Below are positions 35,906 through 40,698 of a stretch of 64,000 nucleotides of DNA, piece by piece. The stretch covers positions 535,400 to 599,399 of the forward strand of contig NZ_RBIJ01000001.1 of the NCBI RefSeq assembly GCF_003633725.1, written 5' to 3'. Below the pieces are notes generated by a model. It saw only the letters and a program-made list of their open reading frames with translations. It had not been told where the DNA came from and did no database searches. This DNA comes from Brockia lithotrophica (lineage in GTDB: Bacteria > Bacillota > Bacilli > Thermicanales > DSM-22653). A program made the translations under genes and the position numbers. The first letter of the stretch is position 1. Each line of letters opens with the position of its first letter.

Positions 35906-37873
35906 TTACCCGAGGACGTAGACGCGCGCCTCGTAAGGCTCGAGGGTGAGGGGGCCGCGCCGCAGGCGCGCCGCGCTCCCAAGGCACCGCTCCGCGGCGT
36001 AGGCTTCGCAGGACCCCTCTGCGCCGCAAACTCCCGGGAAGTTCGCCGCGCGTCCGGAGGGAACACGCGCGCCCCAGAGGACGCCGTACTCAAAAACTCC
36101 CGAGGGAGAAACGGCCCCCTCAGTCGGTTGGGAACAAAAGACGGGTTCGGGATCTACGGCCACAAGCCACTCCGGGACAGTCACCGCGGCGGAATCAGGG
36201 CTCAGATTCGCGAGGACGAGGAGCGTTCCTGGACGTCCGACGGGAGAATCACGGGAAATCTCCCGTGCGCCCCCGCTTCCCGGTTCCGCAAAGGGGTGTG
36301 CTTCTGCTCCGCGTGCGGCAAAGTGCTCCGCCGGCACGGCAGGACGCAAGTAGGCGATGACTTCGGGGGGAACATCGCCCCCCACGTCCTCCAGCGGGAC
36401 GAAGGGGCCATGCGCGGCGGCCGGAAAGGCGCGGCGCAAACCAATGAGCGCCCGCGTGGCGGCGAGGAGAGAGCCGGGGTCGGCGAGTTGGCGCGCGACG
36501 TGGAGTTCGCCCGCACGCGGGTGGGGCGAAATCCACGGGTTCCCCCGCGTAAATCCCCCCGCCGGGTCATCCGTCCAGGGAATGGGAACCCGGGCGTTGT
36601 CCCGACTGCGCCGCCCGAGAAGCGCCAAAATGTCTTCCTCCGCCATCCCCGCCTCGCGGAACAGACGCGCCGCGTTTCGCGACTCGACGTCGCGGTACTC
36701 GGCGAGGGAGGAAAACCCCGCGTTGGGAAGCCCGAGCTCCTCCCCTTGGTAGAGAAACGGGGTGCCGTAGGCGGTAAGGAGGAGGGCGTTCAGGGCGACG
36801 GCTCCTACCGCGCGGTACGCGCCGTCACGGACGTAGCGCGACGCGGGGCGGGGCTGGTCGTGGTTCCCGAGGTAGACCGCCCACCACCCGCGACCCGACA
36901 GGCCCTTCTGCCAGCGCGTCCAAATCTTCTTAAACCTGCCTACGTCGAACGGGAGCGGTCGCCACTTGTTTCCCCCCTCCCCGTCGAAGGTGACGTGATC
37001 AAAAGCAATCACCATATCCAGGATGGGAGCCTCGAGACGCGTCCAGCGCAACGCTTCTTCTAATGTGACGCCCGGCGTCTCGCCGATCACCACCGCCTCG
37101 GGGTTTTGCGCCTTCACCACGCGGTAGAGTTCGCCGACGTAGCGCTCGACCTTCTCGCGGTCGAGGAGGTCGAGGTCGTAGGCGTACGCCGAACCGGGCT
37201 CCGGTCGACCGTTGGGAAGTCCCCGAGGTTTCCCGATGAAGTTGATCACGTCGAGACGAAAGCCCCCGGCGCCGCGGACGAGCCACGTACGGGCGATGTC
37301 CGTGAGCGCCCGGCGTACCGGCGGGTGGTCCCAGTTCAGGTCGGGTTGCTTGCGGTCGAAGAGGTGCAGGTAGTACGCCTGCGCCTGCTCGTCCCAGGTC
37401 CAGGCCGATCCGCCGAAAAAGGATCCCCAGTTGTTGGGCGGGCGACGTTCCCCGTCTTCGTCACGGATCCCCGGATGGAAGTAATAGAAGTCGCGAAACG
37501 GACTTTGGGGGTCCAAACGTGCCGCCTGAAACCACGGATGTTCGTCCGAAGTGTGGTTGAACACGAGGTCGAGGATGAGCCGCATCCCGCGCTTCCGTAG
37601 TGCATCCCGCAGGGCATACAGATCCTCCAACGTGCCGAACGCGGGGTGGACGGAGAGGTAGTCCGCCACGTCGTAGCCGTTGTCCGCCCACGGGGAAGGG
37701 TAGATGGGCGTAAGCCACACCGCATCGACGCCGAGGTGGGCGAGGTAGTCGACCTTTGCGAGAATCCCCCGCAGGTCGCCCACGCCGTCCCCATCGGCGT
37801 CGTAGAAGCTCATGGGGTAGATTTCGTACACCACGGCCGAATGCCACCAAGACGAGCGTGCTCCGAGGGACAT
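35906..37873 (-). CDS. GH13 alpha-glucosidase (oligo-1,6-glucosidase-like)
   Basis: A 655-residue cytosolic glycoside hydrolase of the GH13 oligo-1,6-glucosidase/trehalose-6-phosphate hydrolase group. Regions visible: IYPMSFYDADGDGVGDLRGI, LDLVFNHTSDEHPWF, GFRLDVINFIGK with the nucleophile Asp, VIGETPGV with the acid Glu, and YLGNHDQPR with the third acid. It is about 80 residues longer than typical. The extra length lies in the C-terminal beta domain, as Gly/Ala/Glu-rich loops. The ATG at 37873 begins MSLGARSSWWHSAVVYEIYP, fitting the family. The frame above it reads through the neighbouring tRNA and is not coding. No sugar transporter is adjacent, so the substrate (isomaltose, maltose or sucrose type) is open. 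Confidence 0.9.
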   Translation of the reverse strand: MSLGARSSWWHSAVVYEIYPMSFYDADGDGVGDLRGILAKVDYLAHLGVDAVWLTPIYPSPWADNGYDVADYLSVHPAFGTLEDLYALRDALRKRGMRLILDLVFNHTSDEHPWFQAARLDPQSPFRDFYYFHPGIRDEDGERRPPNNWGSFFGGSAWTWDEQAQAYYLHLFDRKQPDLNWDHPPVRRALTDIARTWLVRGAGGFRLDVINFIGKPRGLPNGRPEPGSAYAYDLDLLDREKVERYVGELYRVVKAQNPEAVVIGETPGVTLEEALRWTRLEAPILDMVIAFDHVTFDGEGGNKWRPLPFDVGRFKKIWTRWQKGLSGRGWWAVYLGNHDQPRPASRYVRDGAYRAVGAVALNALLLTAYGTPFLYQGEELGLPNAGFSSLAEYRDVESRNAARLFREAGMAEEDILALLGRRSRDNARVPIPWTDDPAGGFTRGNPWISPHPRAGELHVARQLADPGSLLAATRALIGLRRAFPAAAHGPFVPLEDVGGDVPPEVIAYLRPAVPAEHFAARGAEAHPFAEPGSGGAREISRDSPVGRPGTLLVLANLSPDSAAVTVPEWLVAVDPEPVFCSQPTEGAVSPSGVFEYGVLWGARVPSGRAANFPGVCGAEGSCEAYAAERCLGSAARLRRGPLTLEPYEARVYVLG

Positions 37874-37903
37874 CCTCAACCCCCCAAAGGAAGCGTACGC
37901 CAC

Positions 37904-37935
37904 AAAAAAACCTCCCCGTCCCGCGTGCGAGGAGG
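37904..37935 (-). terminator. Probable terminator of tRNA-Leu(CAG)
   Basis: On the minus strand a GC-rich imperfect hairpin closed by CCTCC/GGAGG is followed by seven T. It lies about 95 bases after the tRNA 3' end and before the glucosidase start. Confidence 0.6.
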
Positions 37936-38030
37936 CAACGACGTCCGACAAGGCCCCAAAGGGCCGGTGTGGCAAAATACCCGTACGACGTGAAAAAAGG
38001 GGGGTATCCCCGCCTCGAGATCTCGATAGC

Positions 38031-38116
38031 TGGTGCGGGTGACAGGAGTCGAACCTGCACGGGGTCTCCCCCACTGGATCCTGAATCCAGCGCGTCTGCC
38101 ATTCCGCCACACCCGC
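38031..38116 (-). tRNA. tRNA-Leu (anticodon CAG)
   Basis: The minus strand reads GCGGGTG at the 5' end, pairing with CACCCGC at the 3' end, then A and an encoded CCA. The anticodon loop TTCAGGA gives CAG. A long variable arm between GGGGGAGACCCC-type pairs and the T arm (GGTTCGACTCC) marks a leucine (class II) tRNA. A promoter lies just upstream. Confidence 0.95.
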
Positions 38117-38137
38117 AGAAAAGCCCGCGCACGGACT

Positions 38138-38166
38138 ATCTTACTCCGGGCAAGTAAAAAAAGCAA
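38138..38166 (-). promoter_or_regulatory. Promoter of tRNA-Leu(CAG)
   Basis: On the minus strand TTGCTT (38161-38166) and TAAGAT (38138-38143) are 17 bases apart, placing the transcription start about 15 bases before the tRNA. A T-run between the two elements could also serve the end of the mazF transcript. Confidence 0.6.
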
Positions 38167-38205
38167 GGGGGGTTGGGAATACCGCAATCACCACCCGTAC
38201 CAGGT

Positions 38206-38619
38206 TCAGCCGGGCGGGATGTGCGCATCCGTGCGTCTGGGATGGGGACGTGCGGACACCCCCAACATAGAGAGGAGTCGCTTGAGGACCTCCTGAACGG
38301 CAACGTGTTCCTCGTCCAGGTGGCAGATGAGCTCTGCCTGACGGGCCCGATAGTCGAAGCTGCGGACCTGGTCCGCCAATACAAACCCCCGCACGCACAC
38401 GTCCGGCGGAAGCTCCACGGCGAAGAGGTAATTCTCGCGCCGCGTCTGCGTGATGGGGCAGAAGAGCGCAAACCCCGTAATCTTGTTGAACAAATACTCC
38501 GATACGACGATCGCCGGTCGGCGATCGCGGATTTCCCTCCCTTGCTGGGGAGAGAAATCGAGCCACACGATGTCCCCCTTTTGCGGGATGTATCCGGGGG
38601 TCGTCTGTCCGTTGTTCAC
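38206..38619 (-). CDS. MazF/PemK-family endoribonuclease toxin
   Basis: A 137-residue toxin of a type II toxin-antitoxin module. Family signatures are KGDIVWLDFSPQQGREIRDRRPAIVVSE near the N-terminus (substrate loop and catalytic Arg), FALFCPITQTRR with the catalytic threonine, and VLADQVRSFDYRAR. It would cut single-stranded mRNA at short motifs until the antitoxin binds it. The GTG start lies three bases after the stop of the upstream Panacea-domain gene, so translation is coupled antitoxin first. The C-terminal 30 residues (HPRRTDAHIPPG) extend beyond the usual 110-residue core. Confidence 0.9.
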   Translation of the reverse strand: MNNGQTTPGYIPQKGDIVWLDFSPQQGREIRDRRPAIVVSEYLFNKITGFALFCPITQTRRENYLFAVELPPDVCVRGFVLADQVRSFDYRARQAELICHLDEEHVAVQEVLKRLLSMLGVSARPHPRRTDAHIPPG

Positions 38620-38622
38620 GGG

Positions 38623-39279
38623 TCACCACATCTCTCTTCCTATTGGGTTCATCTCCTGCCATAGACGTATTTCGGAAAAGTCGTCGGTGTGCATCCTGTG
38701 GCGAGAAAGGAGGCACATGAGGTAGAAGAGCCCGGAGCTTGAACACCCCCGAGACAGAAGCTCCGCCAGCTTTTCCTCGAAGCGCCTGCGGAGGGCATCT
38801 AAGGGAAGTTCTTGGAACGGAAACCTTCGCAAGGTACGGAAAGACGAACCCATGGTGTGGGTCGTTAACATAGCGAGGACCATTCCCTCAGAGGCAGATC
38901 TCTCCGAAATGGCGTCTCGCTCGGTGAAACTCGGGAAGGTGACGTCCTCCATGATGTCCTGCAAAAGCTCGTCCTCTGCATCGGGGTTGTTATCCCGCCA
39001 CTCGACCACCGCATCGAGCATCTGGCGCTCGTCGAGGGTGAGGCGCTCCCAAGACGCGTCCGGCAAGTCGTGGATCCAGTCGTCTGCGGAGCACTCGTCG
39101 CACAGCCCGGAAATCTCCCATTCGCCGCCCATGCGGGAGATGCGCTCGCGAAAGAGAGGCGATCCCCACCAAGCCAGCGCCCACCCTTGCGCTAAGAGGA
39201 GAATCGCCGTGAGCCGCCCCTTAGGCAGCGGCCCCTTCTTTTTCAGTATGTACGCCGCCACGTCTCGTACACGAGGCAA
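38623..39279 (-). CDS. Panacea/SocA-domain (DUF4065-like) putative antitoxin
   Basis: A 218-residue protein directly upstream of the MazF toxin. The N-terminus VRDVAAYILKKKGPLPKGRL, then LTAILLLAQGWALAWWGSPLFRERI, matches the Panacea/SocA antitoxin domain pattern (V-x-x-Y-x-L-K-K-x-G ... L-L-x-A-Q-G-W-x-L-x-x-x-G-x-P-L-F). LTLDERQMLDAVVEW matches its second helix block. Such domains neutralise many unrelated toxins. The C-terminal 100 residues (from about DELLQDIMEDVTF) are not recognised. The TTG at 39279 has GGAGGAGG eight bases upstream. The open frame to 39606 is low-complexity before that and is rejected. The domain call rests on motif memory. Confidence 0.65.
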   Translation of the reverse strand: MPRVRDVAAYILKKKGPLPKGRLTAILLLAQGWALAWWGSPLFRERISRMGGEWEISGLCDECSADDWIHDLPDASWERLTLDERQMLDAVVEWRDNNPDAEDELLQDIMEDVTFPSFTERDAISERSASEGMVLAMLTTHTMGSSFRTLRRFPFQELPLDALRRRFEEKLAELLSRGCSSSGLFYLMCLLSRHRMHTDDFSEIRLWQEMNPIGREMW

Positions 39280-39555
39280 GGCGCCCGCCTCCTCCGGCGA
39301 TCTCGGCGTTCGTCTCCCGCTCCTTTCGCGGGATCCGTGCAATACGGGCCGGTTCGTCCCTCTCCCTCTTTCTCTCGGGCCATCTCTTGCGGCCTTCCCA
39401 GTCGGCCCGTCCGGACCAATTCCCCTGGGTCCCATCGTACCAAAGCTCCGATCGGAACACAAGAGGTTTTCGATTCTCTTCGTTTTGCTTGCGCCAAAAT
39501 TAAACAGACAAAAAACGAGGAACGTTCGGATTCCCGGAATTTCGACCTCCATACG
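39280..39555. other. AT-richer leader of the toxin-antitoxin operon
   Basis: Between the psrC terminator and the antitoxin gene. It holds the antitoxin ribosome binding site and an AT-rich patch at 39465-39540 where a minus-strand promoter is expected. TTGTCT near 39515 is a possible -35, but no firm -10 was found. No gene seen. Confidence 0.4.
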
Positions 39556-39586
39556 AAAAACCGGCGGACTCCTCCGGGTCCGCCGG
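39556..39586 (-). terminator. Terminator of psrABC
   Basis: A 9-base stem CCGGCGGAC/GTCCGCCGG is followed on the minus strand by five T, about 25 bases past the psrC stop. Confidence 0.88.
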
Positions 39587-39609
39587 CGCGTTCGCACCCG
39601 CCACAACGG

Positions 39610-40698
39610 TCAGTGGAGGAACTGCACGAAGTATCCAGCCTCAAGGATGAGGTAGCGAAGGAGTAGCCCGCCGGCAACGGCCAAAAGACAGGCGAACTGC
39701 CCCGCGGAGAAGAGGCGGGCACCGCCTTCTCCGCCTTCCGCAGAAGTAGCAGACTGCGCATCCGAGGAAGGCGAAGCCCCTCCCGCAGATGCCGCCCATG
39801 CCAGCGCAAACCGCGCGGCGTATACGACCGCGAGGTGCTTTCGTTCCTTGAGCTCGATGTAGAGGGGGACGACGAGCCCGAGGAAGACGAGCCCACCCCA
39901 AAACGGAAGCGCGAGCCGTCCCCACATGAGGTCGGCTACGGCAGCGCGGCCAGCTACGTCCCCATACCATCCGAAGTAGAGAAGAGAAAAGAGGAGGAAG
40001 AGCTCCAAACCTTTAAGCGAGCACCCCAGAGTCAAAAAGGGATAGGCGTGTTCCTCCGCCCGCGGATCCCAAGCCACGGCCGTAAAGAGGGTGACGGCGA
40101 TTCCCGTGGAGAACGCCGAAGTGACGAAGAGAACCGGGAGGACGGACGTATTCCAGAGGGGAACCGCGTGCACGTCGCCGATGAGGAGGGCCGTGTAGGT
40201 GGCCGTAGCCGCGGCCATCACGAGGCCGAAGAAATCGAGCCCGGGTCGCCCTTCCACGAGCCACCGAAGCCATCCCGGCGGTTGGGAAAAGAGGCGATCG
40301 AGCTTCAAAGGCCAGCGCTTCTCGCCCCCTTCCTTCCAAACCTCAGCCAGCGTGACGAAGAACCGGTAGAGGGCGAGCGGAGCGAACACCGTGAGGATGT
40401 ACACGCCGATGGCCATGATGGACGTCGGTCGTCCGACGTACAGGTAGAGGAAACGCCACGGGTGGAAAAATCCCGCCTCCGCGTCCACCATGAGGAGGAC
40501 GAGACCGACGATCACGAGCCAAGGTGCGACGAGGTAGCCGGCCCAACGAATCTTTCGGGCCTCCGGGTAGAGGCGTTGGGCGAGGAACGCCGTAGCGTAC
40601 GCCCCGGCGCTCATACCGGCCAAGAAGAGGTACAGGGCGATGATGATCCCCCAGATCTGTCCGGGCATGGGCATTTCGTGCGAGCCCAACACGGGCAT
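39610..40698 (-). CDS. psrC: NrfD/PsrC-type membrane subunit of a polysulfide/thiosulfate reductase
   Basis: A 362-residue integral membrane protein with about nine hydrophobic helices, of the NrfD/PsrC family that takes electrons from the quinone pool. The N-terminal WGIIIALYLFLAGMSAGAYA is the family signature. The loop between helices 3 and 4 (PTSIMAIGVYILTVFAPLALYRF) and the conserved SPLY-like and HAVPLWNTSVLPVLF segments are present. A Ser/Ala/Gly-rich cytoplasmic loop before the last helix (GGASPSSDAQSATSAEGGEG) is unusual. It lies 44 bases after the iron-sulfur subunit gene and ends the operon. Confidence 0.88.
   Translation of the reverse strand: MPVLGSHEMPMPGQIWGIIIALYLFLAGMSAGAYATAFLAQRLYPEARKIRWAGYLVAPWLVIVGLVLLMVDAEAGFFHPWRFLYLYVGRPTSIMAIGVYILTVFAPLALYRFFVTLAEVWKEGGEKRWPLKLDRLFSQPPGWLRWLVEGRPGLDFFGLVMAAATATYTALLIGDVHAVPLWNTSVLPVLFVTSAFSTGIAVTLFTAVAWDPRAEEHAYPFLTLGCSLKGLELFLLFSLLYFGWYGDVAGRAAVADLMWGRLALPFWGGLVFLGLVVPLYIELKERKHLAVVYAARFALAWAASAGGASPSSDAQSATSAEGGEGGARLFSAGQFACLLAVAGGLLLRYLILEAGYFVQFLH

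What the first reader, a model, noticed from the sequence alone, without database searches (positions are those of the whole stretch)
38206..39279. Panacea-domain antitoxin paired with a MazF toxin
Panacea/SocA domains neutralise many unrelated toxins. Here the partner is a MazF/PemK ribonuclease that normally pairs with a MazE-like DNA-binding antitoxin. A roughly 100-residue C-terminal region of unknown type follows the Panacea part and may be the toxin-binding or DNA-binding element. Gene order and a three-base gap support a true pair.
Basis: partly seen in the sequence, partly recalled or inferred. Interest (0 to 1): 0.55.

Follow-up and report, generated by a model that had tools for sequence, protein, structure and literature searches.

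The report
MazF antitoxin: Panacea-like head, MazE-like tail
Next to a gene for an RNA-cutting toxin lies its probable antidote gene, which seems to be stitched together from the head of one antidote family and the toxin-gripping tail of another; the pairing itself has precedents, but this head-and-tail combination looks new and is easy to test.

Summary
The pair is real: on the minus strand a 218-aa protein (TTG start, 39279-38623) is followed after 3 nt by a MazF/PemK toxin (38619-38206; PF02452 E 1.1e-22). A same-genus genome (G001) has the same order, gap and start codon. "Panacea" holds for ancestry, not for a curated hit: PF13274 misses both orthologs. A purpose-built Panacea profile finds them (E 4.8e-8 for the G001 ortholog, 7e-4 here), but the GPV and TH.E.PW motifs are lost and the middle evolves fast. 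The unexplained C-terminal region ends ...LWQEMNPIGREMW, which resembles MazE C-termini (P about 7e-6 for the last eight residues, post hoc); the motif before a stop occurs once in this genome and once in G001. The toxin nests inside a clade whose sampled members pair with AbrB-type MazE, and its MazE-contact residues are mostly kept. Best reading: the head of a MazE-like antitoxin was exchanged for a decayed Panacea head, and the MazE-like C-terminus neutralises MazF. Panacea-MazF/PemK pairs are already in print; this architecture I did not find described. A fused AlphaFold model left the tail unplaced, and a MazE C-terminal HMM scored only E 0.7-1.2. New variant of a known kind.

The parts
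38623..39279 (-). antitoxin gene, 218 aa, TTG start (P0003)
   Evidence: ORF and translation; ortholog with the same TTG in G001; Shine-Dalgarno identical in both
38950..39270 (-). Panacea-like head, residues 4-110 (best conserved: residues 1-47)
   Evidence: Panacea HMM; 47% identity to an Arthrobacter Panacea protein over residues 1-47; AlphaFold block pLDDT 79-95 over residues 1-100; Foldseek's two best viral hits at probability 1.00, the second named Panacea
38806..38946 (-). low-confidence linker, residues 112-158, overlapping the fast-evolving stretch 48-155
   Evidence: pLDDT <50; residues 48-155 55% identical between G000 and G001, Ka/Ks 0.50
38752..38802 (-). helix 160-176, possibly the last Panacea helix
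   Evidence: alignment A4 with the Panacea I....m.eYY..L segment; predicted helix
38701..38739 (-). predicted helix 181-193 with L187..L190-L191, candidate for the inhibitory MazE-type helix
   Evidence: predicted helix, low confidence; K. pneumoniae MazE contacts L50, L53, L54 (PMC11117207); the correspondence is my inference
38626..38664 (-). MazE-like C-terminal tail, residues 206-218, LWQEMNPIGREMW
   Evidence: end-anchored PSSM, 0 of 934 background tails score as high; motif once per genome in G000 and G001
38206..38619 (-). MazF/PemK toxin gene, 137 aa, GTG start (P0002)
   Evidence: PF02452 1.1e-22; solved MazF homologues incl. 7bye_B and 1ub4_A
39288..39295 (-). Shine-Dalgarno GGAGGAGG of the antitoxin
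   Evidence: sequence, identical in G001
39242..39311 (-). 70-nt block across the antitoxin start, identical in G000 and G001; holds inverted repeat TGTACG/CGTACA (39249-39271); possible operator or leader element
   Evidence: 0 of 5000 column shuffles give so long a run
39434..39462 (-). weak promoter candidate TTGTGT-17-TACGAT, read by eye
   Evidence: sequence; below the scan's threshold (0 promoters found)
39560..39587 (-). terminator-like hairpin between the upstream NrfD-like gene and this pair
   Evidence: 3 terminator-like sites found in 37950-39700 against 2.4 expected; this is the one with 10 pairs

Best explanation
A chromosomal type II toxin-antitoxin pair in which a MazE-type antitoxin has had its head exchanged. 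The toxin is a MazF endoribonuclease. The antitoxin keeps a MazE-like C-terminal toxin-binding region (residues about 181-218): a helix (181-193) that would lie in the hydrophobic groove of the MazF dimer, and the extended tail LWQEMNPIGREMW that would lie on the basic concave site. The AbrB-type DNA-binding head of ordinary MazE is replaced by a diverged Panacea-like head. Neutralisation would be 'linear', by the C-terminal region; the head would scaffold the tail, set antitoxin stability, or sense a trigger. Shown by sequence: the pair and its conservation, homology of the head to Panacea, tail resemblance to MazE, and placement of the toxin among AbrB-MazE-paired MazFs. Inferred: that residues 181-193 are the MazE helix, that the tail binds MazF, that the product is toxic and neutralised, and any role of the head.
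For: Pair: PF02452 1.1e-22; same order, 3-nt gap and TTG start in G001; Ka/Ks between the orthologs: mazF 0.17, antitoxin residues 1-47 0.25, 156-177 0.10, 178-218 0.20, middle 48-155 0.50. Head: an HMM from 23 proteins at PF13274 loci, none chosen for likeness to the query, hits the ortholog over residues 4-93 (28.9 bits, E 4.8e-8 in 1,108 ORFs) and P0003 (15.4 bits, 7e-4); a search of 398 same-class genomes with the two orthologs' profile finds a Pfam Panacea protein (L053, E 8.2e-8); model with two helices, two strands, then helices. Tail: the last eight residues score 13.8 bits with a PSSM of 20 distinct W-ending MazE tails, P 7e-6 under background composition, 0 of 934 background tails as high (best 7.4); with all 35 tails P 7e-5, 0 of 934. 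PxGxExW-stop occurs once in all of G000 and once in G001, both here; of 41 Panacea proteins in hand none has such a tail (best -1.2 bits against 14.4). Toxin: a tree places it inside the AbrB-MazE-paired clade (97/91 fork: 39 MazE-paired rows plus the 2 here); its 33 best other loci (E<=4.3e-12) all have an AbrB-type MazE upstream (33 of 33). Of the eight K. pneumoniae MazF residues that hydrogen-bond MazE (N17, P18, G43, T51, Q77, K79, D82, R86; PMC11117207 section 2.1) six are identical here (P24, G49, T57, Q84, D89, R93), one conservative (R86), one changed (S23), by the 7bye_B alignment.
Against: An HMM of 40-residue MazE C-termini gives only E 1.2 (P0003) and 0.65 (P0004) with W-ending tails, and 7.8 and 14 with all tails, in 1,108 ORFs, so the match rests on about eight residues, and the motif was noticed before it was tested. 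With a 12-residue PSSM the margin over the best unrelated tail was small (7.37 against 7.02 bits, 0 of 844 as high). The fused antitoxin-toxin AlphaFold model left residues 210-226 under pLDDT 50 (pTM 0.43), so no docking is shown. In E. coli the isolated tail MazE 68-82 does not inhibit MazF; the preceding helix 54-67 does (PMC12557383, passages), and the helix correspondence here is the weakest link. The P0003 model was built with Panacea rows in its alignment (A6), which favours that fold. The sampled distribution is one genus.
Confidence: 0.66

Rival explanations
1. An ordinary Panacea antitoxin: the Panacea head itself, by its folded surface, neutralises MazF ('conformational' neutralisation), and the C-terminal likeness to MazE is chance.
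For: Panacea alone can neutralise toxins (Kurata 2023, PMC10440598, passages); Panacea-PemK/MazF-like pairs exist (L007); residues 1-47 are 87% identical between orthologs; the MazE C-terminus HMM is weak.
Against: The central Panacea motifs (GPV, TH.E.PW) are missing and residues 48-155 are 55% identical with Ka/Ks 0.50; in B. choladocola PanA the substitutions Y56A and H120E in the conserved Panacea core abolish neutralisation; tail statistics; the toxin descends from MazE-paired toxins.
Confidence: 0.17
2. A mixed mode: head and tail both contact MazF, or the head dimerises and presents two tails as the AbrB dimer does in MazE.
For: Both ends of the protein are constrained, the middle is less so; a Panacea contribution to homodimerisation is predicted for an HTH-containing Lactobacillus PanA (PMC10440598, passages).
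Against: No structural evidence here; the fused model is uninformative.
Confidence: 0.12
3. A relic: a decaying module whose toxin or antitoxin no longer works.
For: Degenerate Panacea core and a fast-evolving middle.
Against: Both frames are open in two species; mazF Ka/Ks 0.17 and C-terminus 0.10-0.20 show purifying selection; E29, R34 and T57 are invariant in A3, E29 matching the E24 that is mutated in E. coli MazF E24A.
Confidence: 0.05

Closest known systems
PanA:PanT toxin-antitoxin systems (Panacea, DUF4065/PF13274; Kurata et al. 2022, 2023)
   Same: Two-gene module; head related to Panacea; PemK and MazF-like toxins are known partners
   Different: Pfam model fails; core motifs lost; no MazE-type tail is mentioned in the passages I read (their datasets were not read)
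C. doosanense PanA with Phd-C tail, paired with Doc (Kurata 2023)
   Same: Panacea head plus the neutralising C-terminal element of a classical antitoxin (linear neutralisation)
   Different: There the tail is Phd-like and the toxin Doc; here the tail is MazE-like and the toxin MazF
MazE/MazF (E. coli 1ub4, K. pneumoniae 7bye, D. radiodurans 7d2n)
   Same: MazF toxin of the same subfamily; C-terminal tail ending GxExW or GKEML; contact residues of MazF mostly kept
   Different: MazE has an AbrB/SpoVT DNA-binding head (WGNS...RIP); here none
L007 (G010, same class): PF13274 protein beside a PF02452 protein
   Same: Panacea next to PemK
   Different: Canonical Panacea, more distant PemK (34 bits), no MazE-like tail

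Membership tests
Panacea antitoxins (PF13274 / PanA) | Match to PF13274 over its curated cut-off | tested here: not met
   No match at E<=1 for P0001 and P0004; none at E<=10 in G000 or G001
Panacea antitoxins (PF13274 / PanA) | Sequence homology to Panacea proteins | tested here: met
   Purpose-built HMM E 4.8e-8 (P0004), 7e-4 (P0003); profile search hit L053 8.2e-8
Panacea antitoxins (PF13274 / PanA) | Central motifs W.(N/H)GPV and (T/S)H.E.PW | tested here: not met
   Alignment A4
Panacea antitoxins (PF13274 / PanA) | Alpha/beta architecture: helices, two strands, helices | tested here: inconclusive
   Model residues 1-112 show H-H-E-E-H-H, but the alignment held Panacea rows; Foldseek best viral E 2.5e-3 (unnamed) and 0.086 (Panacea), both probability 1.00; no PDB match
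MazE antitoxins | AbrB/SpoVT-type DNA-binding head | tested here: not met
   No such Pfam match in P0001 or P0004; no WGNS...RIP in the sequence
MazE antitoxins | C-terminal toxin-binding tail (xPxGxExW type) | tested here: met
   PSSM P 7e-6 to 7e-5; genome-unique motif; HMM over 40 residues weak
MazE antitoxins | Inhibitory amphipathic helix before the tail | tested here: inconclusive
   Helix 181-193 predicted at block pLDDT about 51-55
MazF/PemK toxins | PF02452 domain with conserved active-site residues | tested here: met
   1.1e-22; E29, R34, T57 invariant in A3; their roles as E24, R29, T52 of E. coli are partly recalled (E24A seen)
Type II toxin-antitoxin system | Toxicity and rescue by direct protein contact | not testable with these tools
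   No experiment; the fused model was inconclusive

The most novel reading that the evidence does not exclude
A natural head swap inside an antitoxin gene: the MazE-type neutralising C-terminus stayed with its MazF while the AbrB DNA-binding head was replaced by a Panacea head, which then lost the surface used elsewhere for direct neutralisation and serves as sensor or stability module. The module has become the only MazF of a lineage in which the NdoA/EndoA-like MazF of its relatives is not found.
Probability: 0.45. Interest if true: 0.62.

Novelty: new variant of a known kind. Interest (0 to 1): 0.5.

Why it matters
How antitoxin families trade partners is an open question. Here the toxin's ancestry, the retained tail and the foreign head point to a specific route: recombination within the antitoxin gene, keeping the toxin-gripping end. 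If right, it separates head function from neutralisation for one toxin (MazF) with two heads (AbrB, Panacea), a direct way to ask what the Panacea head is for, which Kurata et al. 2023 leave as a hypothesis (sensor; passages).

Tried and rejected
Curated profiles: Pfam, NCBIfam, PHROGs and PADLOC give nothing credible for the antitoxin (the BACK, acylphosphatase and phrog_10390 hits at E 0.016-0.078 are taken as chance, as are the acylphosphatase hits in the PDB search). Plasmid and phage collections: no match to P0001. A MazF single-sequence scan of viral contigs found nothing; an alignment query gave 19 loci. HMM of MazE C-termini: too weak to stand alone. Fused fold: MazF mostly well predicted (block pLDDT 92-97, one block 66, ends 50-62), tail not. 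Joint alignments A5, A7 and A8 put the Panacea rows under MazF, so I used A9 without them. Panacea in PDB by sequence or fold: none. RNA families: only tRNAs in the window. RNA structure at the start codon: not significant (z -1.8 and -1.1). Wider distribution: the antitoxin profile matches a whole-length relative only in G000 and G001 among 398 same-class genomes (the other three matches are partial, one of them the Panacea protein L053, E 8.2e-8, the other two weak, E 0.003 and 0.005) and only in G000 among 398 drawn from the phylum; one viral locus matched residues 1-47 (L149, not followed up).

Full report
What is there. On the minus strand an ORF of 218 codons (39279-38623, TTG) is followed by CCC and then mazF (38619-38206, GTG). 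The TTG has a GGAGGAGG Shine-Dalgarno 8 nt upstream, and in G001 the same TTG, Shine-Dalgarno, gene order and 3-nt gap are found. Upstream lies a terminator-like hairpin (39587-39560) after an NrfD-like gene (39610-40698; the name is mine, no family search was run on it); downstream is tRNA-Leu(cag) 38116-38031. The antitoxins are 72% identical, the toxins 85%.

Toxin. P0002 matches PF02452 (1.1e-22) and solved MazF proteins (7d28_A 1.3e-23, 7bye_B 2.1e-23, 1ub4_A 6.9e-16). E29, R34 and T57 are invariant in a ten-row MazF alignment. It carries a C-terminal extension of about 17 residues ending DAHIPPG, kept in G001. PF02452 finds one gene in G000 and one in G001, both this one, whereas G002-G005 each have a strong hit at about 1e-38. 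In the search with P0002, 53 of 61 genomes have a match, mostly weak ones around 30% identity that I take for the housekeeping NdoA/EndoA type (the label is recalled). So this module holds the only recognisable MazF of the genus, in two assemblies of 99% and 97% completeness.

Partner of the toxin elsewhere. I read the upstream gene at the loci of the closest MazFs. All 33 loci at E<=4.3e-12 other than G000 and G001 (L018-L027, L066-L088) have an AbrB-type MazE just upstream (33 of 33; L026 was accepted on its tail, its ORF being short). One search counted 59 of 398 same-class genomes with such a MazF; loci were given for only part of them. A tree of 68 MazF/PemK rows (116 columns, few for so many rows) puts G000 and G001 inside the MazE-paired group, in a fork supported 97/91 with 39 MazE-paired rows, on a long stem of 1.06 changes per column. 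The hits of L028 and L030 are more distant (E 2e-7 and 8e-7) but also MazE-paired.

Head. Pfam does not call Panacea in either ortholog. The search for related loci chose L003-L005 by an 8-residue word, so its E-values are biased. Two searches without that bias agree: the two-ortholog profile A1, run over 398 same-class genomes, found L053 over residues 3-47 (8.2e-8), and L053 is a Pfam Panacea protein (6e-22); and an HMM from 23 proteins at loci picked by PF13274 (L006 and L089-L118; the 23 of those 31 loci that a seed profile of P0006 and P0007 located) hits P0004 over residues 4-93 at 28.9 bits and P0003 at 15.4 bits. PF13274 starts at about residue 23 of real Panacea proteins, so the best conserved piece here (residues 1-47) lies partly outside it. 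In A4 the P0003 and P0004 rows lack GPV and TH.E.PW. The AlphaFold model of P0003 (8 rows, 7 of them Panacea-related) has block mean pLDDT 79-95 over residues 1-100, below 50 at 112-158, and 44-62 beyond. Foldseek's two best viral hits have probability 1.00 (E 2.5e-3, unnamed; 0.086, named Panacea); the PDB gave nothing.

Tail. From 36 loci I took MazE proteins (27 distinct 13-residue tails) and added ten viral ones, giving 35 distinct 8-residue tails, 20 of them ending in W. P0003 ends NPIGREMW; L077 ends KPIGREIW, and D. radiodurans-type MazE 7d2n_E ends EGREEW (the species is recalled). PSSM results: 13.8 bits with W-ending tails, P 7e-6, 0 of 934 background tails as high (best 7.4); 10.3 bits with all tails, P 7e-5, 0 of 934 (best 7.9). 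With 12 residues: 7.37 bits, 0 of 844, best background 7.02, 24 of 200,000 shuffles as high. The HMM of 40-residue C-termini is weak. The DNA form of PxGxExW-stop was searched in 21 genomes: 11 matches, of which 2 are this gene in G000 and G001, 2 are MazE genes (G006 = L028, G017 = L022), 3 end in TGG rather than a stop, and 4 (G002, G003 twice, G004) were not examined; the reversed control pattern gave 11 as well. So the motif is rare, about one per two genomes by chance, and lands here at the one gene beside mazF. Of 41 Panacea proteins in hand (one, L005, is broken), none scores above -1.2 bits.

Why the tail should matter. In E. coli MazEF, MazE 68-82 lies extended on the concave basic site and helix 54-67 fills a hydrophobic cavity; the isolated helix inhibits MazF and the isolated tail does not (PMC12557383, passages). 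In K. pneumoniae, MazE L50, L53, L54, Y66, L67 and M75 make hydrophobic contacts and the tail peptide EYLCDSQGKEML competes with MazE (PMC11117207, sections 2.1 and 2.3). A 35-residue C-terminal piece of MazE, containing a 23-residue inhibitory peptide, was used to keep a MazF construct inactive (PMC3281143, passages). Of the eight MazF residues that hydrogen-bond MazE, six are identical here, one conservative, one changed. I therefore read the tail as anchor and helix 181-193 (L187, L190, L191) as the likely inhibitor; the second half is inference.

Constraint. Between the two orthologs the two ends are kept (residues 1-47 87%, 156-177 82%, 178-218 83%; Ka/Ks 0.25, 0.10, 0.20), the middle (48-155) is 55% with 0.50, and mazF has 0.17. 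These are two sequences only.

Comparison. Kurata et al. 2022 report PemK among toxins paired with Panacea and two PanTs predicted by HHPred to be MazF-like, which inhibit protein synthesis (PMC8832971, passages). Kurata et al. 2023 show that Panacea can neutralise directly or carry neutralising add-ons (PAD1, Phd-C, zinc-binding domain), the closest parallel being C. doosanense PanA with a C-terminal Phd-C tail against Doc (PMC10440598, passages). A find for MazE, AbrB and PemI in the 2023 paper and for MazE and AbrB in the 2022 paper gave no Panacea-MazE fusion, and searches for 'Panacea domain', Panacea with antitoxin, PanA/PanT, MazF with SocA, and chimeric MazE terms showed none in their listings. 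Their supplementary datasets were not read, so 'not described' is limited to that.

Verdict. An ordinary kind of system with an unusual build: a MazF module whose antitoxin joins a decayed Panacea head to a MazE-like C-terminus. The pair is well supported, the head's ancestry well supported, the tail moderately supported, the mechanism inferred.

Noticed in passing
window 39242-39311 (-): 70 nt identical between G000 and G001 across the antitoxin start codon, where the 468-column region is 68% identical; holds an inverted repeat TGTACG/CGTACA. Could be an operator or a leader element.
   Followed up: partly
G000 and G001 (whole genomes): No second PF02452 gene: the strong NdoA/EndoA-like MazF found in G002-G005 is not found in this genus.
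   Followed up: partly
L007 241-693 and 641-1315 (-): A Pfam Panacea protein directly followed by a PF02452 toxin in G010, same class.
   Followed up: partly
L003 5450-5911, L004 5450-5971, L053 1937-2392: Panacea genes followed by a recurrent 151-173 aa protein without Pfam match (ends like ..FHIVWWD..IWPS), likely one toxin family shared by three distant genomes.
   Followed up: no
L005 4992-5340: Panacea gene in a Bacteroidetes MAG broken by in-frame stops.
   Followed up: no
window 35906-38110 (-): The mechanical ORF of the glycosidase-like gene runs through the tRNA-Leu gene (38031-38116), so its listed N-terminus is a tRNA read as protein; the true start lies further downstream.
   Followed up: no
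window 38206-38259 (-): C-terminal extension of MazF (..RRTDAHIPPG) beyond the usual end, conserved in G001.
   Followed up: no
G000:C6:74728-75747: Second NrfD-like copy in the genome, 70% identical to the one at window 39610-40698.
   Followed up: no
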